NCBI GenBank assembly: GCA_021604005.1 | Contig: BQIV01000032.1 | Coordinates: 1 to 58,002 of the forward strand | Source: Nitrospirales bacterium | GTDB lineage: Bacteria; Nitrospirota; Nitrospiria; Nitrospirales; UBA8639 | DNA length: 58,002 nt | Reading direction: 5' to 3' | Part shown: one piece after another, positions 3,320 through 24,634 of the stretch | Layout: each line of letters opens with the position of its first letter | Position numbering within the stretch: the first letter of the stretch is position 1 | Notes under the pieces: model-generated | Seen by the model: only the letters and a program-made list of their open reading frames with translations | Database searches by the model: none | Told to the model about the DNA's origin: nothing | Translations under genes and position numbers: made by a program

Positions 3320-3687
3320 TGCCTATTATGGCATCGCTAGGTTAATCAAATCGATTCATCAATTCTAAAGGCCAGGCCTGAATTTTAATTAAACCGCAAA
3401 AACCCATTGACCTGCTAAGGGCTCAAAAGTAGAGAGTCATAGGCTCAAAAGGCTAAGCCATTCCGGGGCCAATGCTTTCCCTCCCAATAGGTACGTTGAG
3501 AGTACTCACTGTTGCTACGTGCCCACACGGGGGAATACTATAACCCGGCAGCCCCGCTACCGCTCGCATTTCCCGTTTCTCAAATTTCCTTCACACACCT
3601 TTCAACCAACCCATCAAATACTCGTTATTCTGGAGAGCTTTTATGTTGTAAGCCTAGGGTGAAGAATATCTATTATCGAAAAATTTG

Positions 3688-3724
3688 TTATCACTTTGGA
3701 TACAAATCGTATCTTTTTCGATAA
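3688..3724 (+). promoter_or_regulatory. Phased GTATC/GATAC half-site array A (putative activator-binding site)
   Basis: Four pentamers start at 3688 (TTATC), 3699 (GATAC), 3709 (GTATC) and 3720 (GATAA), with spacers of 6, 5 and 6 bases. The array is a dyad of two inverted pairs, all on one face of the helix (steps 11, 10, 11). It also forms an 11-bp perfect inverted repeat, TTATCGAAAAA (3673-3683) against TTTTTCGATAA (3714-3724). Arrays with the same spacing are at 7947-7983 and 20167-20204. It stands about 100 bp upstream of a -24/-12 type promoter, where a sigma54 enhancer-binding protein would sit. Between 3320 and 3687 I see nothing else. Confidence 0.65.
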
Positions 3725-3821
3725 CAGATACCAATGAAGGCGAAGATGTATTCACCGGCCAATTCTAGGAATCATACAACATACAACAATGATCACATGG
3801 GATGAGAGCACGCAATCAAAA

Positions 3822-3837
3822 CGGAACAACACTTGCG
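3822..3837 (+). promoter_or_regulatory. Putative sigma54 (-24/-12) promoter of the 125-aa gene
   Basis: CGGAACAACACTTGCG has GG at 3823-3824 and GC at 3835-3836, exactly 12 bp apart as sigma54 requires, with a perfect TTGC. The -24 half deviates from TGGCAC. It is 98 bp downstream of array A and 57 bp upstream of the GTG start at 3895. Confidence 0.5.
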
Positions 3838-3894: not shown

Positions 3895-4272
3895 GTGGCT
3901 AGAAAAAAGAGGAACGGAAGTAGTCGGCAAGAAGACGATTTTGGCCCAAGCTATCATTATGTCATGCCGCAAGAAGCGTGGCTTGTCGGAATCGGTTATC
4001 GGTTTATAACAGGAAAATTGCACGACTCAACTTATGGGATAGAAAGTAAGTCTGATACGAAGACAGATTCAGGCCAAATAGCGGAATCCGAAGCGAAAAA
4101 TGAGCCCAAAGATTCAGACTTGAAATTGCACATATGCGGCGACGAGTTTGTAACGGTAAAATACAATAGACTCACAACCGTGCTAATTGGGGGTCCTGAA
4201 AAAGGTCATATAGTCACAGTCACGACATACGCCCATAACAATACGGCACTCTGCATTGAACGTTTATTATGA
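3895..4272 (+). CDS. Unknown 125-aa protein under a putative sigma54 promoter
   Basis: I do not recognise a family. The start is a GTG at 3895, preceded by a strong AAGGAGG (3881-3887) with a 7-base spacer. The N-terminus is basic (MARKKRNGSSRQEDD), with no signal peptide or membrane segment. A Ser/Asp/Lys-rich, probably disordered stretch lies at about residues 45-73, followed by a compact beta-rich C-terminus (LHICGDEFVTVKYNRLTTVLIGG, with a Cys near residue 81). The gene is single-standing, with array A and a -24/-12 site in front and a haemagglutinin gene 185 bp behind, so it may be expressed together with that exoprotein system. The protein is likely cytoplasmic; its role is unknown. Confidence 0.65.
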   Translation: MARKKRNGSSRQEDDFGPSYHYVMPQEAWLVGIGYRFITGKLHDSTYGIESKSDTKTDSGQIAESEAKNEPKDSDLKLHICGDEFVTVKYNRLTTVLIGGPEKGHIVTVTTYAHNNTALCIERLL

Positions 4273-4403: not shown

Positions 4404-4439
4404 GTACACCGGCCGGCAACATTCGTCCGGCCGGTGTAC
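4404..4439 (+). promoter_or_regulatory. Perfect 13-bp hairpin in the leader of the first haemagglutinin gene
   Basis: GTACACCGGCCGG (4404-4416) is repeated inverted at 4427-4439 with a 10-base loop. The stem ends 18 bp before the chosen ATG (4458), just ahead of the ribosome binding site GAAGGAGA. There is no T-run after it, so it is not an ordinary terminator. It could protect the 5' end of the mRNA, limit translation or end the upstream transcript weakly. Confidence 0.6.
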
Positions 4440-4457
4440 ATACGAGAAGGAGATTCC

Positions 4458-7400
4458 ATGAGGCCCTCTAACAACCTATCGCGTTTTGAGTTGTCGATTC
4501 TTTTTTGTTTCCTGATATCCAGTGGTCAGCTGTTACCTTCTCTACTCTCCTCAAACACTTCTGCTCAAACGCCCACCCCCCACATTACGATTGACGGATC
4601 TCTAGAAAAACTCGGCGGAAGTGGCTTTCGAGCATTTACGGAAACCAATGTAGAAATCACTCAGGAAATGGGGGTCACACATGGGGCTAACCTGTTTCAT
4701 AGTTTTGGCCGGTTTAATATTCCCACAGACCATAGTGCGATGTTTTCTGGCAACCCTGGAATCGTCAACATCCTCAGCCGAGTAACCGGCGGAGAGATCT
4801 CTTCTATAGATGGGGAACTCGCTTCAACCATCCAAGATGCCAACCTGTTTATCATGAATCCGGCTGGGGTGTTATTTGGCCCCCAAACGACACTGAACAT
4901 AAGCGGTTCCATGCATATTACCACTGCCAATCAACTCCACTTCGAAGATGGGACAACGTTCTACGCTAATCCAACACGAGACTCTCAGCTTAACAGTATC
5001 CTTCAAGTCTCCCCAGTTGAGGAATTTGGGTTTCTCGGGAATCCTACACACTTCGGGTTTACCAGTGAAACGCCTAACACTCGTGCCGACATTCGAGTTG
5101 CTGGAAACCTCAAAGTCGACCCAAGTAAAACTCTATCCCTAATTGGTAAAGATAGTGAGGCGGAAGGAGACGCTCAGGAAGGAGTGTCGATTACCGGGGG
5201 AACTCTCCAAGCACCTGGTGGAAATGTGACAGTTATCAGTATAGCGGCGCTTCAAGAAAACACCGAGAACACAGCTTTCATAGGTGTCGATGGGAACAAT
5301 TTTCAGACTTTTACCTCACAGGGTGAAATGATTCAAGAATCGCTACAACTCGGCGACATTCTTGTCTCTGAAGAAGGTCGCATCAATGCTAGTGGGGACG
5401 GAGGAGGGACGGTCGTCATTCGAGGCGGACAACTTACAGTAGACGAATCTTCTTCGATACGTGCGAATACAACAGGCCCAGCAAAGGGCCTCCTAGCAAG
5501 TGAACAGGGACTAGGCATTGATATCCAAATAGCCGGCAATGTGCTTCTCGATAATAAGTCGAGCCTAGAAACAAATGTGTTGCCACAGGTCACTCAAAAT
5601 ATTGGATCTGGTGGTGTACGGATAACGGCAGACCATGTGGAGATTGCCAATGAATCGTTTATCAATTCCAGCGTGGCAGAAACAAGTACAGGAGGCCAAA
5701 GTGGAGACATCGCCATAGACGCGCAGACCGTATTGATACGAGACTTCGGTTTTGTACAAGCCGGCACAGATGCTCCCTCAGCAAATGGCGGAAACATTTT
5801 CTTGAACGCTAGCGAAAATTTGGAACTTCGAGATGGTGGCTTGGTGTTCGCCTTTACAGATTTCGGACTGGGCCATTCGGGCAACATTGAGGTGCAGGCA
5901 GGCAATCTGTTGCTTGCAGGCGACAATCCTGCCGTTGACAGCGAACACACGAGCATAGCAAGCCAATCGTTCTTTAAGGGTAATGCCGGAAACATCGACA
6001 TTGAAGCCAATCACGTACACATTGAAAATGCTGAAATTACTAGCACCACGTCCGAAGGGGCGGATGGCAAGTCAGGAAACATTGATATAGACGCACGGAG
6101 TGGCGCTGTTTTTTTATCGGAAGGGCTTATAGATGCAAACACAAAAGGAAGCGGAAATGGAGGGCTTGTCAACGTAACGGCGCAGAACTTGGAACTCACG
6201 AATCAGGCTAGCATTCAAGCCTCAACTTCAGAGTCCGGAGATGCAGGGAACGTCACATTGGATGTGACAAACACCCTTGAACTGAATAAAGGCTCTTCGA
6301 TTCAAACCCAAACAAAAGGTAAAGGAGAAGCTGGAAATCTGACCGTTACTGCCAAGGACATTGTTATTACCGGGATTAGTGAAGCGAAAAATCCAACAGA
6401 AGGTGCCGAGGCGACAGGATTGAGCTCAACCACTTCGACTTTTGGGAAAGGGGGAAATATCCTCATACAGGGCGAAAATCTTCAGATAACGGACAAAGGA
6501 CTTATTAGCAGCGCAACACGAGGAGCAGGAGATGCCGGGGATATCACCATCAATCTAACCAAGAATTTAGTGGCAACGAATGGAGCACAGATCTTTGCAA
6601 ATACAAACAATACCGGCAATGCGGGAATCATTATGATCGAAGGTCATGACATTCTTCTCAGCGGCGTCAATCCAATTCCAGTCATAGGGGCCAATGGGAC
6701 AGAACGCCCATTTAGAACTGCTATCGCAAGTGCAGCTTTAGGGGGGAGTGGTCTGGGGGGAAGCATTTCTGTAGAAGCCATGAGAGATCTTAAAATTGAA
6801 GATGGAGCCGTAGTGGCAACGGACAGCTTTGGAAACGGGAATGCAGGAAATCTTAGCCTTACTAGTCACAACACCATTCTTGTCGACAGTAGCTTTGTCA
6901 CGACAAAAGCTCAAAATGCAATAGCTGGGGATATCAATTTCAAAACAGAGAATCTCATCACAATACTGAACAGTGAGATTGTGAGCGAAGTACCGGAAGG
7001 GTCAGGCTCTGCTGGACGGATCAACATTGATCCACAATTTATCGTGGTTCAAAACAGTCTGATCGACAGTAGTGCAAATTTTGGAGATGGTGGAGATGTC
7101 ACGTTTGTGGCAGATTCGGCGATTCTGATCGATCCATTTAGCACAATCGATACGTCATCGCAATTTGGCGGCAGTGGGACAGTCGATATTCGGGCACCCA
7201 TCCAAAATCTTGGTGAGACTATAGCTCCGTTGCCAGAGGAAATTCTAAAAGTCTCGGCACTGTTTGCGGCACACTGTGCTGCGCAGAAAGGTGGCAAGTT
7301 CAGTAGTTTTCTTCAAGGCGGCCGCGACGGGACCCCGCCGGGGATTACAGGTTTCTTACCGAGTCCCTTGACGTTTTCGACTTCAAGTCCCGAAAACCCA

Positions 7401-7526
7401 TTCCTCACCACCTTGCAGTTCGGCTTTGACGACAAACAAAAAGAAACTAAGTGGATACTTTTCAACTCCGACGATACAAGAGATCTTGCGAAAGGCTGCT
7501 CATCCGTTCCTGCATTTCCATCCTAA
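4458..7526 (+). CDS. Filamentous-haemagglutinin (TpsA-like) exoprotein 1
   Basis: About 1022 aa from the ATG at 4458, which follows GAAGGAGA; an upstream in-frame start at 4434 lies inside the hairpin. A signal peptide ends near SAQT. The next 250 residues are the TPS/FHA N-terminal secretion domain, with the hallmarks NLFHSF, NILSRVTGG and NLFIMNPAGVLFGP. The remainder is a long series of beta-helix repeats rich in G-N-I/G-D-I and TNGAQI-type turns. The protein should be exported by Sec and threaded through a TpsB/FhaC-type outer-membrane pore to stay on or leave the cell surface; no tpsB is in the window. The C-terminus carries a block (VDIRAPIQNL, ETIAPLPE, LKVSALFAAxCAAQKGG) almost identical to that of the second haemagglutinin. 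Such proteins are common in cyanobacteria, often near CHAT and DUF928 genes, as here. Confidence 0.9.
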   Translation: MRPSNNLSRFELSILFCFLISSGQLLPSLLSSNTSAQTPTPHITIDGSLEKLGGSGFRAFTETNVEITQEMGVTHGANLFHSFGRFNIPTDHSAMFSGNPGIVNILSRVTGGEISSIDGELASTIQDANLFIMNPAGVLFGPQTTLNISGSMHITTANQLHFEDGTTFYANPTRDSQLNSILQVSPVEEFGFLGNPTHFGFTSETPNTRADIRVAGNLKVDPSKTLSLIGKDSEAEGDAQEGVSITGGTLQAPGGNVTVISIAALQENTENTAFIGVDGNNFQTFTSQGEMIQESLQLGDILVSEEGRINASGDGGGTVVIRGGQLTVDESSSIRANTTGPAKGLLASEQGLGIDIQIAGNVLLDNKSSLETNVLPQVTQNIGSGGVRITADHVEIANESFINSSVAETSTGGQSGDIAIDAQTVLIRDFGFVQAGTDAPSANGGNIFLNASENLELRDGGLVFAFTDFGLGHSGNIEVQAGNLLLAGDNPAVDSEHTSIASQSFFKGNAGNIDIEANHVHIENAEITSTTSEGADGKSGNIDIDARSGAVFLSEGLIDANTKGSGNGGLVNVTAQNLELTNQASIQASTSESGDAGNVTLDVTNTLELNKGSSIQTQTKGKGEAGNLTVTAKDIVITGISEAKNPTEGAEATGLSSTTSTFGKGGNILIQGENLQITDKGLISSATRGAGDAGDITINLTKNLVATNGAQIFANTNNTGNAGIIMIEGHDILLSGVNPIPVIGANGTERPFRTAIASAALGGSGLGGSISVEAMRDLKIEDGAVVATDSFGNGNAGNLSLTSHNTILVDSSFVTTKAQNAIAGDINFKTENLITILNSEIVSEVPEGSGSAGRINIDPQFIVVQNSLIDSSANFGDGGDVTFVADSAILIDPFSTIDTSSQFGGSGTVDIRAPIQNLGETIAPLPEEILKVSALFAAHCAAQKGGKFSSFLQGGRDGTPPGITGFLPSPLTFSTSSPENPFLTTLQFGFDDKQKETKWILFNSDDTRDLAKGCSSVPAFPS

Positions 7527-7946: not shown

Positions 7947-7983
7947 GTATCCGGAAAGATACAAATGGTATCCAAACAGATAC
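7947..7983 (+). promoter_or_regulatory. Phased GTATC/GATAC half-site array B (best copy)
   Basis: Perfect pentamers GTATC (7947), GATAC (7958), GTATC (7968) and GATAC (7979), with spacers 6-5-6, the same geometry as array A and steps of 11, 10 and 11 bp. All four halves match exactly. It is 91 bp upstream of an excellent -24/-12 promoter, so an oligomeric activator binding here could loop to sigma54 polymerase. Confidence 0.75.
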
Positions 7984-8073
7984 AGGCAGGAAATTACGCA
8001 AAGAAAGATGGATCTGGCTCACAAGTCTGAAAATCATCAGCGAATCTCTCTTGTCATAAGGGCGTGAGCCTCA

Positions 8074-8089
8074 TGGCATCGGCCTTGCT
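8074..8089 (+). promoter_or_regulatory. Putative sigma54 promoter of haemagglutinin 2
   Basis: TGGCATCGGCCTTGCT matches the sigma54 consensus TGGCACG-N4-TTGCW closely, with GG (8075-8076) and GC (8087-8088) 12 bp apart. Transcription would start near 8100, giving a leader of about 64 bases before the GTG at 8164. Confidence 0.7.
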
Positions 8090-8163: not shown

Positions 8164-11001
8164 GTGACCACGACTCTCAACTATTCAGCGTGTCCGCGCT
8201 ATTGTTTGTCTTTCGCCATGCTTGCAATTTCTTTGATGCCCGTTGCAACAACGTCAAACGCTCATGCCCAAGCACAAGTCGGTACGAATATTCAGCCCTC
8301 TGGACTCAACACGATGGTGTTGCCCAACGGCAATGTCATAGAAATCAAGGGCGGCACACGTCCGAATGACGGTCGGAATTTGTTCCATAGTTTCAGCGAA
8401 TTTAGCGTCGGCGCGGACCATATCGCCCACTTCCTGAATGACAGCCAGCTGCCCACGGAGAATGTCCTAAGCCGCGTCACGGGCAATAATGCTTCTCACA
8501 TCATGGGAACTATCAAAACGACGGACGCTGTCCAAGGCTTCGGTGACGCGAATTTCTATCTCATGAATCCCCAAGGAATCATCTTCGGACCAAAAGCCAC
8601 ACTGGACATTGGTGGATCATTTTACGCCACCACCGCGAACAATATTGAGCTAGCCGATGGGGAATTTTTTAACGCCGTTCCCAACCAAGAAGTCGACTCC
8701 TTACTCACCTCTGCACCTCCAGAAGCGTTTGGGTTCTTAGGAAATAGCCCGCCAGGTCCAATCACAATTGAGGAAAGCGTCCTTTCAGTCCCAGCAGGTG
8801 AAACTCTTTCATTCGTAGCAGGTGATATTAGTATTACGGGCTCTCCGCCGTTTTTTCCTGGCTTTCCTCCTCTCCCCGGCGAAGAAACAATAAGAACTCC
8901 ATTTGGACAGATCCATATGGTCAGCCTATCAAATGAAAGCCAAGTCACAAACATTTCCACTTCTTCTGGTGAGGTAACAGCTGGACAAGCAAATGGCACC
9001 ATTATTATTTCAAATGCAACCTTATCCACATTTGGATCAGGTATTCCTCCACTTAATACGAAGAATCAAGAATCGGTGATCGCAATTAAAGGCGGTAGAC
9101 TCAAAGCGATGGACTCGTTTTTCTTTACAAGCGTTTCAGACACGAATCAAGACGCTGGAAACTTAAATATAGACATGGCAACTAGCTTTTCACTTACTAA
9201 CTCCCAAGTTACTGCAGACTCTAGAGACGCAGGGAGAGAAGGAAATATCGCACTACATGGAGGAGGAACCATATCTTTAACTAATTCACTACTGTCATCC
9301 GCCAATTCGATGTTAAACAATCCTCCTAGCAATAAAGGTATTCAAAACAATAGAGGTGGCATTATTCTTAATGCTTCTGCAGTCGAGTTAACTGATCACA
9401 GCGAATTGACTACTAGAAGTATTGGAGGCCAACAAGGAAATGACATTCACATAACTGGAGATAATATTCTAATTGATAATAATTCAATAGTATCGACTGG
9501 CACATTTGGCCTTTCACCATCGGGAGATATCACAATTGAAGCACAAGAAACCTTTAAACTTTCAGGAGCATCAACCCTTGAGACTAATACACCCGGTCAA
9601 AAAAATGCGGGAAATATTAATATTAAGAGTCCAGTCTTAGAAGTTTTAGAAGGAGCAAGCATCCAAAGCGTCACCGCTGGCATTGGTGATGCTGGAAGAA
9701 TTTCCTTGAATGGGCAGGATAGAGTCATTATTTCAGGATCTTCTAATAATACTCCCATGTCATTTCCTAGCAGAGTCAGTACTCAAAGCATTGATTTTAC
9801 TTCTGGTAAAGGCGGCAATATCCTAATCGAGGCAGGGGATTTTCAATTAACAAAAGGCGGGATTGTAGATAGTAGCACTGCAAGCCAAAGCCAAGGTGGG
9901 ATCGTTTTTATTGACGCAAATTCCATATCTATTTCTAGTAATGGAACTTCAGTTAACTCGGAAACATCAGGGTCAGGAACAGGCGGAACGGTCAGACTAG
10001 ACGCAACCCAACGAATAGTTGTCACAGGTGGGGCATCAATATCTACTACTAGTTCCCAAGCCGGAAACGCTGGAAACATCATATTAAGCGCAAAACACAT
10101 CGTTATGGATAGGAGAGCACAAATAACGAGCAATAGTATTAGTCAGAAATCAAATGCAGGTGGGGGAGGTACAATCGAAGTCATCGCGACCAATTCCATT
10201 GACCTAACAGCAAGCAAGGTTTCAACATCTGTAGAAGACGGAAGCAAATCTGGGGGTAACATTACGTTATCAGCTGAGCAAAATGTTCTCCTAAGTGGTG
10301 ATACGACCATTACTGCAGAGAGCCTCGGTTTGGGTAATGCTGGAGCTATTCTCATTGAAGCCAAGAATATCGTTCAGGTAGATAACAGTAGGGTCACAAC
10401 CCAAGCCACAAAGGCCTCTGGAGGTGATATTAGTTTAGAGGCAACCGATATGATTCGTCTGAAAGACAGCACCATTGAGAGTTCAGTGCAGGGGAATCAA
10501 ACGTCTGCTGGAGGTGACATTAGTCTGGACCCACAGTTTGTTGTTCTTCAAAATAGCAGGATCTTAGCCACGGCAACCTCAGGGTTTGGGGGTAACATAG
10601 AAATCGTGGGTGACGTGGTGTTGGCCGATCCGTTCAGCCTTGCCCCTGCGAATCTTTCGGCTTCATCTGAAGCTGGTCCTCAATTTAGCGGAAACGTAGA
10701 CATCCGAGCACCTATCCAAAATCTCAGCGAAACCATTGCTCCCTTGCCGGAAGCTATTTTAAAAGTATCAGCTCTGTTCGCAGCCCGTTGTGCGGCACAG
10801 AAAGGCGGAACTTTCAGTACTTTTGTGCAAAGTGCACACGCATTAAAACCTTCATTATTTCTTAAATTTCTGACTAGCCCGATACTTGAGCAAAACTTTT
10901 CAAAAATAAAGTTCAGTGATTCTCATTCGACTATGGCAATTTTAAAATTTTCGAATATTCCAAGCATTGAATGTGGAGAGTTAGACTTCATAACGTCGTG
11001 A
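8164..11001 (+). CDS. Filamentous-haemagglutinin (TpsA-like) exoprotein 2
   Basis: 945 aa from a GTG preceded by AAAGGAAG (8148-8155). A signal peptide ends near SNAHAQA. The TPS domain shows NLFHSFSEF, NVLSRVTG and NFYLMNPQGIIFGP. Repeated beta-helix rungs with GNI/GDI turns fill residues 280-850. The C-terminal block VDIRAPIQNL-SETIAPLPE-LKVSALFAAxCAAQKGG repeats that of the first haemagglutinin, although the two differ widely elsewhere, so this block is probably a common secretion, folding or anchoring module. The expected TpsB transporter is absent from the window. Array B and a -24/-12 promoter precede it. The middle of the gene is rich in A/T compared with its 5' end, as is common in such repeat regions. 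Confidence 0.9.
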   Translation: MTTTLNYSACPRYCLSFAMLAISLMPVATTSNAHAQAQVGTNIQPSGLNTMVLPNGNVIEIKGGTRPNDGRNLFHSFSEFSVGADHIAHFLNDSQLPTENVLSRVTGNNASHIMGTIKTTDAVQGFGDANFYLMNPQGIIFGPKATLDIGGSFYATTANNIELADGEFFNAVPNQEVDSLLTSAPPEAFGFLGNSPPGPITIEESVLSVPAGETLSFVAGDISITGSPPFFPGFPPLPGEETIRTPFGQIHMVSLSNESQVTNISTSSGEVTAGQANGTIIISNATLSTFGSGIPPLNTKNQESVIAIKGGRLKAMDSFFFTSVSDTNQDAGNLNIDMATSFSLTNSQVTADSRDAGREGNIALHGGGTISLTNSLLSSANSMLNNPPSNKGIQNNRGGIILNASAVELTDHSELTTRSIGGQQGNDIHITGDNILIDNNSIVSTGTFGLSPSGDITIEAQETFKLSGASTLETNTPGQKNAGNINIKSPVLEVLEGASIQSVTAGIGDAGRISLNGQDRVIISGSSNNTPMSFPSRVSTQSIDFTSGKGGNILIEAGDFQLTKGGIVDSSTASQSQGGIVFIDANSISISSNGTSVNSETSGSGTGGTVRLDATQRIVVTGGASISTTSSQAGNAGNIILSAKHIVMDRRAQITSNSISQKSNAGGGGTIEVIATNSIDLTASKVSTSVEDGSKSGGNITLSAEQNVLLSGDTTITAESLGLGNAGAILIEAKNIVQVDNSRVTTQATKASGGDISLEATDMIRLKDSTIESSVQGNQTSAGGDISLDPQFVVLQNSRILATATSGFGGNIEIVGDVVLADPFSLAPANLSASSEAGPQFSGNVDIRAPIQNLSETIAPLPEAILKVSALFAARCAAQKGGTFSTFVQSAHALKPSLFLKFLTSPILEQNFSKIKFSDSHSTMAILKFSNIPSIECGELDFITS

Positions 11002-17549: not shown

Positions 17550-19835
17550 TTACAATGTTTTGAGAAATTCAATGAGCGCCCGTTTGTCGCTGTCACCAAG
17601 TTGGCTTCCATACTCATGACCGCGATCGACCACAAAATCGGTACATTTATTCACCTTAAGCAGATCAGGCACCAATTCTTTCAACAAGGCCGTACTCTGT
17701 GTCTCATTCAGGTTTTCCGTTTTGATGCGTTTGAGCCCAGCCTTTACTTTGAGTAGAACTTTGACGAGACGGGCAAGGCGAACGGGATCTTTAAAGGAGA
17801 GTTCGTTGTTCAGATTGGCCAATAAGTTAATTGGGGTTCCCTTGGGAATCGGCCCAATGCGTAATTCCTTCTCCCCTTTTTTCAGGAGCTTAGCCTTGAG
17901 AACGCCTGGAAGATATTCTTGATTGATCTTTAAGTAACTGACTTTAGTGGTTTTATAAATTGGCGGGCACCAGGGAAGGCCCCATGTTTCTTGGCAGCGC
18001 GTCTCGACACGCTTTTCCGGCCAGAGCAACTTTTCTACACCGTCTTGAAACGCGTCCATACGTCCCGCAACCGATGGATCATTCGTAAACTTTCCAAGCG
18101 CATTGTTATGGAAATACGGCGCCGTACTCCACATACTGACGAGTGAAGGCGAACGATAGTACCCCCGGCCTCCTCCCGGCATTTCGTAGGTCGACGGCTC
18201 ACCGGTCAAGGGGTGGTGTACTTTAATCGGACGCACAGCAGGAAGTGTCTTATACGTTTCCGATGTAAAATTATCCCAAATATGTCCTCTCAGCCCATTC
18301 GTCGCCAACGCTGCACAGGCATTCGTCTTGAGGTCGGCAACCGAATAGCGGTGTTCATTTGATAAATAATTATCGTCGAGAAAGTCCGGCTGCATGATCA
18401 TCTCCCGCATCTGTTTCTTGAAGTCTTCCGATTCCACCCATTTGTTATAGAAGGAATCAAATTTTGTGACAGTATCATGCGGTTCGGGCTGTTTACTGGA
18501 ATGACAGCCTGCACAATTATCTGCAAACACTACTTTTCCTCGATTGAGTACCGACTCATCATTTGTTACATAGGCTTGACCACCAGGGGCATCTTGTAAA
18601 TGATGCCCCCCTGCCGCCTTCAGGAAAAATTTAGCCAAGTTTTCAACACGCTGTTCCGTGGCTTGCCAGTAGACAGAATTGTCTTTTGCCGAGGCGATAT
18701 CCATGGGAAACTGTTTTTTACCGCCAACGAGGGGTTTGAAATGCTGGAGCCATTCTTCATGATATTCACCGATGTTAATATACACACGGCTGAGCGCCCC
18801 AAGTATTCCAACCGAGTCGGCGCCATCTTTGAGAATATGGGGGACCACCATGCGAGGTTGCGTGCCCGGCACAGCGAGCGCGCCTCCGGAAATGTCTTCT
18901 TCCTCTCCTGTTTTCAATCGGGCGCCAACCTCGTAAATCGCATTCATCGTTCGCGGGTTATTGATATTGTCGGTCGCGATGATCGAGGTATCCAAAGCCC
19001 CAGGAGGTGAACTGTTGAATAACTGCCATACAAAGTTTTCTTCATCCGGATGGGCGATAAAGATCCTGCCGATCCAGAAATATTGCGCGCCGACGTTTGT
19101 GGAAAGATTTTTCCACTCAGGGTTTTCAGGATCAGCCGGCGGATGAAGCGGATGGGGACCGACATGACAAAAGGCACACGACATGCCCACACGATAGGGA
19201 CGTTCTAATTCTTTGTCCAAGTAGTAGTCAGGATCCGTGTAAAAGCGTTCGGCATCCCAATAGGCCACAGCATCCTGATCATACTCAGGACTGGATTCAT
19301 CGAACTTGGGATTGAGGAACAGACGTAACCCCACGATTCCTGAAGATTTTCCGTACACCACCGGATCGATGCCTTCCGGCTCCGGCTCTATTCGCTCGTC
19401 AAGATATAAGCCATATTTTGGATCAGGGCCCGTAGCCTTTTTAAATCCAGGCTCATTCATCAGCCCTAAATAATCAAAACGATTATCCCGGCTGTAATAA
19501 TATGTTTTTCCGTTTTTATCAGGCTTGGGATACGAAGACAGCGTTTTCAGAAAGTCCAGCGTGCCAAAACTATTCTTCGCCATGTAGTCCCAAAAGGCCT
19601 GATTGCCGCCTGTCCACAGCATCCACGTGTTTCGGCCCTTGACCTCATCTGGCGTCAGCGCAATCCCGCCATCCATATCACGAAATACATCCACGGCAGT
19701 TTCCGGAAAATCGGCCGCCGTCTTACCCTGACGTTTCGCCTCATCTTGTGCGGCAGTTCGAAACAGACTGCACCCCGACACGAATAACAGAGAAGGAACA
19801 AGACAGGACACCATGAATACTGTGAACTTTTTCAT
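17550..19835 (-). CDS. Large di-haem cytochrome c lipoprotein (RoxA-like / cytochrome c peroxidase superfamily)
   Basis: 761 aa from the ATG at 19835, chosen for AAGGAGG 10 bases ahead; the frame opens upstream at 19880. A lipoprotein signal ends at FVSGC (Cys22). Two haem-c motifs are present, CAFCH (220-224) and CAGCH (441-445), about 220 residues apart. Total length and haem spacing resemble RoxA/RoxB-type rubber oxygenases and related di-haem proteins more than the 350-aa cytochrome c peroxidases. RNTWMLWTGGNQAFWD, GLRLFLNPKF and RPYRVGMSC are conserved-looking blocks. Periplasmic, membrane-anchored. It may be an oxygenase or an electron carrier for the downstream GMC enzyme. Array C and a -24/-12 promoter precede it. 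Confidence 0.7.
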   Translation of the reverse strand: MKKFTVFMVSCLVPSLLFVSGCSLFRTAAQDEAKRQGKTAADFPETAVDVFRDMDGGIALTPDEVKGRNTWMLWTGGNQAFWDYMAKNSFGTLDFLKTLSSYPKPDKNGKTYYYSRDNRFDYLGLMNEPGFKKATGPDPKYGLYLDERIEPEPEGIDPVVYGKSSGIVGLRLFLNPKFDESSPEYDQDAVAYWDAERFYTDPDYYLDKELERPYRVGMSCAFCHVGPHPLHPPADPENPEWKNLSTNVGAQYFWIGRIFIAHPDEENFVWQLFNSSPPGALDTSIIATDNINNPRTMNAIYEVGARLKTGEEEDISGGALAVPGTQPRMVVPHILKDGADSVGILGALSRVYINIGEYHEEWLQHFKPLVGGKKQFPMDIASAKDNSVYWQATEQRVENLAKFFLKAAGGHHLQDAPGGQAYVTNDESVLNRGKVVFADNCAGCHSSKQPEPHDTVTKFDSFYNKWVESEDFKKQMREMIMQPDFLDDNYLSNEHRYSVADLKTNACAALATNGLRGHIWDNFTSETYKTLPAVRPIKVHHPLTGEPSTYEMPGGGRGYYRSPSLVSMWSTAPYFHNNALGKFTNDPSVAGRMDAFQDGVEKLLWPEKRVETRCQETWGLPWCPPIYKTTKVSYLKINQEYLPGVLKAKLLKKGEKELRIGPIPKGTPINLLANLNNELSFKDPVRLARLVKVLLKVKAGLKRIKTENLNETQSTALLKELVPDLLKVNKCTDFVVDRGHEYGSQLGDSDKRALIEFLKTL

Positions 19836-19972
19836 ATCGACCATGCCTCCTTGCAAGCTTCCATTGAACAGATACATCACGATGAACGTCTATCATTCGT
19901 TTTTCGTATGCTCAAGAAACAAAGCGTCATTGGGATCATTCTCGGAATTGTCATAAAATTGTTCCAGAAATT

Positions 19973-19988
19973 TGCAGATTACATGCCA
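19973..19988 (-). promoter_or_regulatory. Putative sigma54 promoter of the cytochrome operon
   Basis: On the minus strand TGGCATGTAATCTGCA has GG and GC 12 bp apart and differs from TGGCACG-N4-TTGCW mainly at one base in each half. It lies 138 bp before the cytochrome ATG and 179 bp downstream of array C. The rest of 19836-20244 shows no gene. Confidence 0.6.
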
Positions 19989-20166
19989 TCAATACACGTA
20001 TGGCGGCGTTCAATAACTCACCCAATTTACTTCGTAAAAATTATGGAATGTATTGCACATTGCGTTCAGTATTCGTGCATGCACGTATACTCGAATGCAT
20101 ACCATGGTAGGTGTTTATTAGTAATTTGTCCAGAGGAAAAGACCGCAGCATTTCAGAGTCCACACT

Positions 20167-20204
20167 GTATTAAAATAGATACACCATTGTATCCTTCCGG
20201 ATAA
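20167..20204 (-). promoter_or_regulatory. Phased GTATC/GATAC half-site array C
   Basis: Pentamers at 20167 (GTATT), 20178 (GATAC), 20189 (GTATC) and 20200 (GATAA), spacers 6-6-6, steps 11-11-11. It has the same alternating order as arrays A and B, with one extra base in the centre. It is placed upstream of the di-haem cytochrome operon on the minus strand. Confidence 0.65.
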
Positions 20205-20244
20205 CAATATTGCCGACTCCACAGGTATGAATAAATTTATTCAC

Positions 20245-21453
20245 TTACGTGAGCCGGCGCAACTCTTCTAAGGTATCTGGAATGTGAAATGTAATCTCTC
20301 CATTAAATTCCCGATGAATCAGGCTTTGAAAAAAGACATGGCTGATGTTTTCATGAAGATGTTGAGAGGAATCAACACGGTCCACCACATTCCACAAGCG
20401 GCTCCATATGGACGGAAAGGTCGTGACCAACCACTTTGTCAGATAGAGAAAACGAACCGGCTTGATCCCAATCCTTTCACACCCCGCACGTCCCATGAGT
20501 TCTTCCATGTAGATCCGCGGGAGAATTTGTATGCCAAGCCGTCGTAACGGGGTTTGTGGCAAGAGATCATTCAACATGCGAAGGTTGACCGTCGCTAATT
20601 CCACCCCTTCGGGATTCTGGCCAGCCTCCACATAATGCCTCCGCATATAGGACGCATAAAACTCCTGGGCTTCCGTAAGATTTTTAGGGACATACTCGCT
20701 ACTATCCGGTTGTCCTTCGGGATGAATTCCCATCATTTGAGCAACGATACGCCACAGGTAATACCAATCTTCTGCTTGCTCAGCCGATAGGCCAATACGT
20801 AATTGCTTGAGTCCCGAAATCACCAAATAGGAAAATCCCATAACCGTTCCCAATTGATCTTCAAGATTTACCGGCACCCCATAGCGAGCTTCATAGTGCG
20901 GAAGATGTTCTCGGACAATCTTGCGAACGCCCGCATGCAGTAAACGTATTTTGGGGACGGTAATGAGGGCTTTGCCCGACGGGTCAAACCCGCCGACAGC
21001 CGAGACATTGATGAGCATTTGCAACACCCCGAGTATTCGTCGATAGGGACGTTGCGAAAGGTTATTCGATAGGTTCAACACGGTGGAAAGATTGGGAGCC
21101 GCATACCCTTCAGGAAGGCTTTTCGTTAAAAGTACTAATGCACACGGAAAGGCATGCGTCATAAACACACGTTGGCCACGCTTGATTCGCTCACGATCAA
21201 TGGGATGCGCTTCAAGCAAGGGCAGGTTCATTGTCGAAGTCAGAAACGCGTGGAGCGGTTCAGGTATTTCGTTCGAAAGAACAGCCGTGTTCGTATTGAG
21301 CCGTTGAAACAGATCGCTGAAATCTTCTTTCCTCAACACGTCGTGAAGTTGAGTTAAGCATCGATCGGCTGCAGCATCTCCCTGAAGTCGTATACTGTCT
21401 AAAAAAAGATCATTCGACCACTTGCTTCCACCGCTGTCGTCATTGATAGCCAT
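20245..21453 (-). CDS. MpaB/Lcp-type (DUF2236) oxygenase-like protein
   Basis: About 402 aa from the ATG at 21453 (MAINDD); earlier starts reach 21516. The core RPYRRILGVLQMLINVSAVG, then KIRLLHAGVRK (His173) and YGVPVNLEDQLGTVMGFSYL, follows the DUF2236 family, which includes latex-clearing protein Lcp, a haem-b polyisoprene dioxygenase, and MpaB prenyl-chain oxygenases. The His in the LHAxVR motif is the family's haem ligand position. No signal peptide is visible, unlike secreted Lcp, so it may work in the cytoplasm or at the membrane. It is followed by the cytochrome-GMC-catalase set on the same strand, separated by array C. The substrate is unknown. Confidence 0.7.
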   Translation of the reverse strand: MAINDDSGGSKWSNDLFLDSIRLQGDAAADRCLTQLHDVLRKEDFSDLFQRLNTNTAVLSNEIPEPLHAFLTSTMNLPLLEAHPIDRERIKRGQRVFMTHAFPCALVLLTKSLPEGYAAPNLSTVLNLSNNLSQRPYRRILGVLQMLINVSAVGGFDPSGKALITVPKIRLLHAGVRKIVREHLPHYEARYGVPVNLEDQLGTVMGFSYLVISGLKQLRIGLSAEQAEDWYYLWRIVAQMMGIHPEGQPDSSEYVPKNLTEAQEFYASYMRRHYVEAGQNPEGVELATVNLRMLNDLLPQTPLRRLGIQILPRIYMEELMGRAGCERIGIKPVRFLYLTKWLVTTFPSIWSRLWNVVDRVDSSQHLHENISHVFFQSLIHREFNGEITFHIPDTLEELRRLT

Positions 21454-21620
21454 ATCGATGATTTTCCATGATCTATCGTAAGATGCGTAGAACAGCATAC
21501 ACATATTCCACAACATGAAAAAGACGCATCACACGAAAAATTTCATGCAAGGACAATCAATGGAACATTCTGATAGTCGGTTCTGGGTGAGCAAGCAAAG
21601 AGCGGGGAGGGGCAGTATTT

Positions 21621-22797: not shown

Positions 22798-23107
22798 AGG
22801 ATTTCTCTGCAACGAGACAATCGGAACAGCTTCCCAATACCCTGATGAAGAACGGGTAATCGTGTTCATGAAAGGCTGTTGCAGGGAAAAGACAGGCTCT
22901 GCATCTGAAGACACTCTGACTTCATGGTAGACAGTCACAACAACACGTCACGCCTAACATACGGAAATAGCAGTATTTTCATAAGGTGTCACCAGGGGAG
23001 TCAGGTGTGTAAACATTGTAGACATTCTGAAATAATTCCACTATATTTTCATCAGCAACGTATTCAACGGAATGTGCCTACGTCATATTCCGTTTTCTGG
23101 ACCTTCC

Positions 23108-24634
23108 ATGACACAGGCACCACAAAGACTTGGGCCATCGATTGACCCACTCCAATCCATTCTGCCTGTCTGTCGAAAAATGAGAGCGGAGCGTAATCTC
23201 CCCGCATTGCTCCGACTCATTGCCAAAGAAGCGAAGCATCACCTGTCAGCAAATGACGCCAGCCTCCTCCTCTTCGATCAGGAACGCTGCGAACTCTGGT
23301 CGTACATCACATTGGACGGTGAAATTATCCGTTTCGATGCGCGGCTGGGGATTGCCGGAGCAGCAGCACTCACTGGAGAACTGCTGAACATTACCGATGT
23401 TCAACAAGATTCCCGGTTTTACAAAGATATTGACGCCCACTCCAAAAAACGAACGCGCAACCTCCTCGCAATACCGCTTCAAACGCACAATCATGAAGTA
23501 CTCGGGGTGTTAGAGGTGATGAACAAAAAACAGGGCACCTTCACGCAGCAGGATGAAGTGCTTGGACGCGCGCTCGCGGAACAAGCGGCACTGAGCATTG
23601 AATCAACGCAAACGGTCCAAGAACTCACACAACAACAACAGCAACTCATCACGGAAAACGCACAACTTCGAAAAGAAATTGAAGGACGCTTTGCCACGCA
23701 ACACTTCATCGGCGTCAGTCCCCATATGCAGGGCATCGTCCGGCTCATTGATCAAATCCGAGATAGTTCGGTTGATGTGCTCATCACGGGAGAAAGCGGG
23801 ACAGGAAAAGAGCTGGTCGCCAAAGCTATTCACTACAATAGCCTACGCGCCCACAAGCCGTTCATTGCCTTAAATTGTGCCGCCATTCCGGAACACCTCG
23901 TGGAAAGCGAACTCCTGGGCATCCAACGAGGCGTGGCTACGGGAGTAGAATCGCGGATTGGGAAATTTGAACAGGCCAATGGCGGGACGCTCTTTCTTGA
24001 TGAAATTGGCGATCTTGGCATCAACGCCCAAGCTAAAATTTTACGGGTACTGCAAGAACGCAGCTATCAGCCGGTCGGAGGACGAACCACTCGTACACTT
24101 GATGTCAGGATACTGGCCGCGACCAATAAAAAACTTGATGAACTCATCGCGCAGAGCCTCTTTCGAGAGGATCTCTATTATCGTTTAAAAGTTATCCACA
24201 TCCCGACCCCCCCGCTTCGGGAGGTTCCGGAAGATATACCACTGCTTGCCGCACATTTCTTAACGCAACAATCACGTCAGGCGAAGAAAGAGGAGAAACA
24301 TCTAAGCCCCGACGCCCAACGTGCATTGCAAGCGTATCATTGGCCTGGAAATATTCGAGAACTTGAAAATGAAATGAAACGCATTGTGGCGACCGTGAGA
24401 CGCGTGGAGATTTTGGAACACGACCTGGATGTACTTATTCGCAACCAGAAAAAGCCTATGCTCAATACAGCGACACAGAGATCTCGCACGCTTCCCGAGG
24501 CCGTTGCCCAATTAGAAGAACAGATGATACGAGAAGCCTTACTCTCCTGCCGATCCAATCAGGTGCAGACTGCGAAAATGCTTGGCCTGAGCCGCCAGGG
24601 TCTCATCAAAAAAATGAATCGATTGGGGATCTAG
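23108..24634 (+). CDS. GAF-AAA+-Fis transcriptional activator of the sigma54 type, with GVATGV in place of GAFTGA
   Basis: 508 aa from the ATG at 23108 (the frame opens at 23072). A GAF sensor domain covers residues 25-165, then a Gln-rich coiled coil (170-192), an AAA+ domain with Walker A GESGTGKE (228-235), Walker [12 protein letters not shown] (292-302) and the arginine-finger region FREDLYYRL, and finally a Fis-type helix-turn-helix ([20 protein letters not shown]). Enhancer-binding proteins use loop GAFTGA to touch sigma54; here it is GVATGV (275-280), while everything else is intact. GAF domains bind small ligands, so the signal may be a metabolite. The gene is divergent from DUF928 and is the best candidate for the factor reading the GTATC/GATAC arrays. 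Confidence 0.85.

What the first reader, a model, noticed from the sequence alone, without database searches (positions are those of the whole stretch)
7947..8089. Three identical-geometry GTATC/GATAC arrays, each ahead of a sigma54-type promoter
Arrays A (3688-3724), B (7947-7983) and C (20167-20204) all have four alternating pentamers with 10-11 bp steps (spacers 6-5-6, 6-5-6, 6-6-6). B is perfect at all four. Each is followed on the sense side of a gene by GG-N10-GC at -24/-12. The geometry fits a tetrameric or two-dimer activator on one DNA face. I know of no published regulator with this exact site. It suggests a regulon that joins a surface haemagglutinin, an unknown 125-aa gene and a di-haem cytochrome operon.
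Basis: partly seen in the sequence, partly recalled or inferred. Interest (0 to 1): 0.86.

Follow-up and report, generated by a model that had tools for sequence, protein, structure and literature searches.

The report
Paired-dimer sigma54 enhancer regulon in Nitrospirales
A 37-38 bp DNA pattern of four alternating GTATC/GATAC half-sites is a real switch element: this nitrite-oxidiser relative carries 23 copies, nearly all of the order carries it, and most copies sit just upstream of sigma54-type gene start signals, so they mark one large and previously undescribed gene-control network.

Summary
The window's genome holds 23 arrays (16 with a 5-nt and 7 with a 6-nt centre); the reversed-pattern control finds none. 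When the centre may be 2-30 nt, every exact hit has 5 or 6. None overlaps an ORF of 170 aa or more. Good -24/-12 matches pile up 60-140 nt from the arrays (12/23 here, 47/91 in other genomes) and drop to background beyond. Most of 60 order-level genomes carry arrays (381 in total; 4 control hits); one genus lacks them. An exact-match scan of 84,980 species returns mostly Nitrospira and Nitrospirales. Array C is conserved in four species together with its sigma54 site, while the distance between the two changes from 110 to 197 nt, as expected of a looping enhancer. Best explanation: an enhancer bound by two dimers of a sigma54 activator (NtrC class). A GlrR-like response regulator fits best, but five array-bearing genomes lack it, so the regulator is unresolved. 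One dimer unit, GTATC-N6-GATAC, equals the published RhpR site of Pseudomonas syringae; I found no report of the paired array.

The parts
3688..3724 (.). Array A: four alternating half-sites (18/20), spacers 6-5-6; proposed two-dimer enhancer
3822..3837 (+). weak sigma54 -24/-12 candidate CGGAACAACACTTGCG, 97-98 nt from array A
   Evidence: low consensus score, not tested in relatives
3895..4272 (+). 125-aa gene of unknown function, putative target of array A; followed by a two-partner-secretion (TPS domain) exoprotein gene at 4434-7526
   Evidence: no Pfam match; next gene PF05860
7947..7983 (.). Array B: perfect four half-sites, spacers 6-5-6
8074..8089 (+). sigma54 -24/-12 site TGGCATCGGCCTTGCT, 90-91 nt from array B
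8164..11001 (+). TPS-domain (filamentous haemagglutinin-type) exoprotein, putative target of array B
   Evidence: PF05860 E 2.5e-39
20167..20204 (.). Array C: four half-sites (18/20), spacers 6-6-6; conserved at the same place in G001, G002 and G003
20103..20131 (-). conserved block between array C and the sigma54 site (GGACAAATT..ACCTACCATG), readable as a sigma70-like promoter (TGGACA-N17-TACCAT)
   Evidence: reading as a promoter is inference
19973..19988 (-). sigma54 -24/-12 site TGGCATGTAATCTGCA of the RoxA-like gene; conserved in four species at varying distance from the array
17550..19880 (-). RoxA-like c-type cytochrome gene, putative target of array C (likely start near 19844)
23072..24634 (+).

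Best explanation
Each array is a sigma54 enhancer (upstream activating sequence). Two dimers of a bacterial enhancer-binding protein (NtrC class, Fis-type HTH) bind the two GTATC-N6-GATAC palindromes, which are locked 21 or 22 bp apart (two helical turns) so that the dimers lie on one DNA face. That would seed assembly of the AAA+ ring, which loops over roughly 60-200 bp to the sigma54-RNA polymerase waiting at TGGCAY-N5-TTGCT and opens the promoter using ATP. Shown here by computation: the operator, its fixed geometry, its intergenic placement, its position relative to -24/-12 sites, its order-wide conservation, and the elastic distance to a conserved sigma54 site. Inferred: the protein class, the ring and looping steps, and activation rather than repression. 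Unknown: which activator. The best candidate is the GlrR/QseF-like response regulator G000:C21:75500-76921 (about 0.3); several activators sharing the operator is also possible. Two other activator genes (C6- and C9-type) have arrays of their own upstream and are probably regulated members.
For: 23 arrays against 0 in the reversed control in the genome. With a free centre of 2-30 nt all 10 exact hits have the 5/6-nt centre. No array overlaps an ORF of 170 aa or more (28% of 37-bp windows are free of such ORFs; P about 2e-13). Sigma54 matches of score 18 or more at 60-140 nt: 12/23 and 47/91; at 220-300 nt: 2/23 and 6/91. 381 arrays in 60 order-level genomes (the tally includes G000 itself) against 4 control hits. 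Perfect arrays among 84,980 species are mostly from Nitrospira/Nitrospirales. Array and sigma54 site are both conserved ahead of RoxA in four species while their distance is 179, 197, 121 and 110 nt. Conserved array plus -24/-12 ahead of C6-type activator genes in G000, G004, G025 and G059. Copies share only the half-sites and weak inner preferences, not their flanks.
Against: About half of the perfect arrays in other genomes have no sigma54 match of score 18 or more at 60-140 nt, about a third none of score 16 or more, and array A's promoter is weak; some arrays may act on other promoter types, and array C has a conserved sigma70-like block nearby. No activator in the searched genomes matches array presence exactly. 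The one published protein known to bind this palindrome, RhpR, is a two-component response regulator; whether the window's genome has a relative was not tested.
Confidence: 0.87

Rival explanations
1. The arrays are operators of a non-sigma54 regulator, such as an RhpR-like response regulator or a repressor, that happens to control many promoters which are also sigma54-dependent.
For: RhpR of P. syringae binds exactly GTATC-N6-GATAC; array C has a conserved sigma70-like block 26-36 nt from the array; a minority of arrays lack a good sigma54 site.
Against: The -24/-12 enrichment is confined to 60-140 nt, outside classical repressor or sigma70-activator positions; array-promoter distance varies by tens of nt between species, unusual for a protein touching polymerase directly. 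An RhpR orthologue was not looked for.
Confidence: 0.1
2. A GlrR/QseF-like response regulator (histidine kinase - QseG-like protein - GlrR-like operon, G000:C21) is the single order-wide regulator (a more specific form of the best explanation).
For: Orthologues at 64% identity or more in 38 of the 60 genomes tallied; median 8 arrays with it against 1 without; absent from the array-free genus g4. Operon order resembles E. coli qseE-qseG-qseF.
Against: G005, G006, G009, G049 and G057 have 3-7 arrays without an orthologue; G043 and G046 have it without arrays. With genome size and activator number in the model its effect is weak (t 1.8). E. coli QseF recognises TGTC-N10-GACA (PMC8745638), and no array or palindrome lies near its own operon.
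Confidence: 0.3
3. The GAF-type activator at window 23072-24634 regulates the arrays.
For: It sits by array C in four g1 species and has an array just past its 3' end in several g9 genomes and in L100/L195.
Against: Not found in Nitrospiraceae genomes with up to 19 arrays.
Confidence: 0.12
4. The arrays are dispersed repeats (REP- or MITE-like) spread by transposition.
For: Many palindromic intergenic copies per genome.
Against: Copies share only the 5-bp half-sites; flanks carry about 0 bits; position is maintained at orthologous loci.
Confidence: 0.01

Closest known systems
NtrC-class sigma54 enhancers (UAS), e.g. NtrC at glnA, PspF UAS I/II, GlrR/QseF sites at glmY (general knowledge)
   Same: Palindromic dimer sites, often in pairs, about 100 nt upstream of -24/-12 promoters, acting over variable distance
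   Different: Here the pair is always locked at 21-22 bp and the half-site is GTATC; the activator is unknown
RhpR operator of Pseudomonas syringae (PMC4191427)
   Same: Identical single unit GTATC-N6-GATAC, shown there by DNase I footprint
   Different: Single, often imperfect repeats there; no paired array and no sigma54 coupling of the site reported in the passages read
PEP-CTERM box regulon (PrsK/PrsR, motif 1 plus sigma54 motif 2; PMC1569441)
   Same: Upstream motif, spacer of about 63 nt, sigma54 site, many lineage-specific surface genes; this genome encodes PrsK and PrsR
   Different: Motif 1 is a 17-nt element ending TTTACA, not GTATC arrays
E. coli GlrR (QseF) regulon
   Same: Closest named family of the best candidate regulator; similar operon order
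   Different: Published site TGTC-N10-GACA; candidate scores 479 bits against the 763-bit cut-off for GlrR

Membership tests
sigma54 enhancer (UAS) | -24/-12 (GG-N10-GC) promoter downstream | tested here: met
   12/23 and 47/91 at 60-140 nt against 2/23 and 6/91 at 220-300 nt; conserved
sigma54 enhancer (UAS) | palindromic dimer binding sites | tested here: met
sigma54 enhancer (UAS) | tolerates changed distance to the promoter (looping) | tested here: met
   179, 197, 121 and 110 nt in four species (sequence evidence only)
sigma54 enhancer (UAS) | cognate AAA+ activator identified | tested here: inconclusive
sigma54 enhancer (UAS) | activator- and ATP-dependent transcription | not testable with these tools
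   needs experiment
RhpR operator | inverted repeat GTATC-N6-GATAC | tested here: met
RhpR operator | RhpR orthologue in the genome | not tested
GlrR/QseF regulon | TGTC-N10-GACA sites | tested here: not met
   3 in 226 kb of array loci, about 3.4 expected; arrays lack TGTC half-sites
PEP-CTERM box (PrsR) regulon | 17-nt motif 1 ending TTTACA | tested here: not met
   array consensus differs; PrsR itself is present
dispersed REP/MITE repeat | sequence similarity extending beyond the half-sites | tested here: not met

The most novel reading that the evidence does not exclude
A Nitrospirales-wide sigma54 regulon, read by one or several activators through a shared locked two-dimer enhancer, that switches on a fast-changing set of lytic and conflict effectors (caspase, TIR-nSTAND, subtilases, papain and trypsin-like proteases, nuclease, Tle1-type lipase) and surface exoproteins in nitrite oxidisers.
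Probability: 0.25. Interest if true: 0.78.

Novelty: new member of a known kind. Interest (0 to 1): 0.62.

Why it matters
Gene regulation in Nitrospira and its relatives, the main nitrite oxidisers, is almost unknown because they are hard to grow and to modify. A sharp operator that can be found by a plain pattern search gives a ready list of co-regulated genes in many genomes, names testable regulators, and assigns dozens of unknown, often secreted genes to one response. The targets suggest that these slow growers run a sigma54-controlled programme of surface proteins, hydrolases and conflict effectors.

Tried and rejected
Window activator 23072 as the general regulator: rejected, not found in Nitrospiraceae. 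C6- and C9-type activators as general regulators: rejected, 8/60 and 4/60 genomes, though both have arrays upstream. FhlA-type HTH activators: the only HTH class judged common to six array-bearing genomes and missing from array-free G014, but in the 60-genome search several array-bearing genomes lack it and some array-free ones have it. Array counts follow genome size and activator number so closely (Spearman 0.88 each) that co-occurrence cannot single out one activator. PrsR/PEP-CTERM box and GlrR TGTC-N10-GACA as the same element: rejected. Dispersed repeat: rejected. Bacteroidaceae and Prevotellaceae hits in the species scan are a different repeat (GTATCACCGGTGATAC-like) and were left out. 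A regulon-wide family scan by alignment was prepared but not used; individual controls were scanned instead.

Full report
Observation. The three arrays are present at the stated places with the stated spacing. Array B is perfect, A and C match 18 of 20 half-site bases. The window is contig 32 of a 4.7-Mb, 92-contig genome. Its order-level relatives carry Nitrospirales names in the species scan, and G054 has the exact length (4,317,083 bases) of the Nitrospira defluvii chromosome FP929003 listed there.

More than chance. GTATC-N6-GATAC-N5-GTATC-N6-GATAC with up to 3 mismatches occurs 16 times in the genome and the 6-nt centre form 7 times; the same patterns read backwards occur 0 times. When only the TATC/GATA cores are required and the centre may be 2 to 30 nt, all ten hits have the 5- or 6-nt form. 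So the geometry, 21 or 22 bp between dimer centres, is a real constraint. None of the 23 arrays overlaps an ORF of 170 aa or more, although only 28% of 37-bp windows in those regions are free of such ORFs.

Sigma54 promoters. I scored GG-N10-GC sites pointing away from each array against the TGGCACG-N4-TTGCW consensus. At 60-140 nt from the array edge, sites of score 18 or more occur at 12 of 23 arrays in this genome and at 47 of 91 perfect arrays from other species; in the next bins outward the counts fall to 2/23 and 10/91, then 2/23 and 6/91, then 1/23 and 4/91. The scoring weights are mine, built on the textbook consensus. For B the site is strong, for C good, for A weak.

Phylogeny. Of 60 genomes tallied (the window's own, four of its genus, the rest of its family and order), most have arrays, 381 in all against 4 control hits. 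Genus g4 has none beyond weak 3-mismatch hits.

Footprint at array C. In G001, G002 and G003 the order DUF928 - Lcp-like - array - RoxA-like is kept, with 17-18/20 matches and a centre of 5 nt in G001 and 6 nt in G002 and G003. All four species have a sigma54 site (TGGCATGTAATCTGCA in G000, TGGTATGTAATCTGCA in G003, TGGCATGTGATCTGCA in G002, TGGCGTATGATCTGCA in G001), but 179, 197, 121 and 110 nt from the array. The automatic alignment missed this because of the length change. Conserved ends at an elastic distance are the mark of a looping enhancer. A third conserved block between them reads as a sigma70-like promoter. In Nitrospira LK70 (L094), of another family by its name, a perfect array stands ahead of a same-strand gene pair that includes a RoxA-like gene.

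Which regulator. The genome has about 30 matches to the sigma54 activator domain. The window's own activator (23072) was found in 17 of 60 genomes and in no Nitrospiraceae, where G047 has 19 arrays and G054 17. C6- and C9-type activators are rare, but both have an array and, in most cases, a -24/-12 site upstream in several species, so they look like regulated members. A GlrR-like response regulator in a kinase - QseG-like - regulator operon next to the exosortase/PrsK/PrsR genes has orthologues in most array-bearing genomes and not in g4, but five genomes with 3-7 arrays lack it. FhlA-type HTH proteins fit six hand-compared genomes but not the larger set. Because array number tracks genome size and activator number, I leave the regulator open.

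Targets. Genes behind arrays are diverse and mostly species-specific: TPS exoproteins, a RoxA-like cytochrome, a Tle1-type lipase, an operon with a haem-oxygenase-like protein and a subtilase, an SCP2 protein and many unknowns here; elsewhere a caspase, a TIR-nSTAND1-FGE protein, a nuclease, subtilase, papain and trypsin-like proteases, a hemopexin-repeat protein, an eCIS-core protein and a SLATT/DUF4231 effector. In 40 non-target ORFs from the same loci I counted one M16 peptidase and one CHAT protein, the latter next to the caspase on the same strand. The targets to scan were chosen partly because they looked recognisable, so this enrichment is a lead, not a result.

Known or new. The nearest system-level parallel is the PEP-CTERM box regulon (PMC1569441). 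Six literature searches aimed at the operator, sigma54 in Nitrospira, and GlrR or PrsR gave no report of the paired array; the library is open-access only. I file it as a new member of a known kind: a sigma54 enhancer regulon with a new locked two-dimer operator and an unknown activator.

Noticed in passing
window 20103-20131: A block conserved in four species between array C and the sigma54 site reads as a sigma70-like promoter (TGGACA/TAGACA-N17-TACCAT), so the RoxA-like gene may have tandem promoters.
   Followed up: partly
window 17550-21516: A RoxA-like cytochrome and an Lcp/MpaB-type oxygenase, both relatives of rubber-cleaving enzymes, lie side by side in four species of this genus.
   Followed up: partly
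L045:4308-5762 (G000:C6) and L041:6398-7807 (G000:C9): Two sigma54 activator genes have arrays upstream, kept in several relatives: a cascade or autoregulation.
   Followed up: partly
L355 (G000:C21:64000-80664): Histidine kinase - QseG-like - GlrR-like operon directly beside exosortase EpsH, EpsI-like, PrsK and PrsR genes.
   Followed up: partly
L107:2873-6975: Caspase (C14) gene downstream of an array, followed by a CHAT-domain gene on the same strand, in a Nitrospira genome.
   Followed up: no
L157:590-3208: TIR-nSTAND1-FGE-sulfatase protein downstream of an array with a sigma54 site 87 nt away.
   Followed up: no
L109, L127 (Latescibacterota SI053_bin19) and L133 (Nitrospinota B18T1B5): Perfect arrays with sigma54 sites at 74-121 nt outside Nitrospirota.
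   Followed up: no
L097, L105, L108, L110, L111, L131, L152, L154 and others (Bacteroidaceae MAG CAJOEI): An unrelated dispersed palindrome, GTATCACCGGTGATAC-like pairs, many copies in one genome and mostly no sigma54 site.
   Followed up: no
G044, G047, G050, G052, G057 (genus g12): Arrays in this genus often use GAATC/GATTC for part of the half-sites, a possible change of regulator specificity.
   Followed up: no
window 3670-3735: Extra half-site-like words flank array A (TTATC about 15 nt before, GATAC just after), hinting at a longer array.
   Followed up: no
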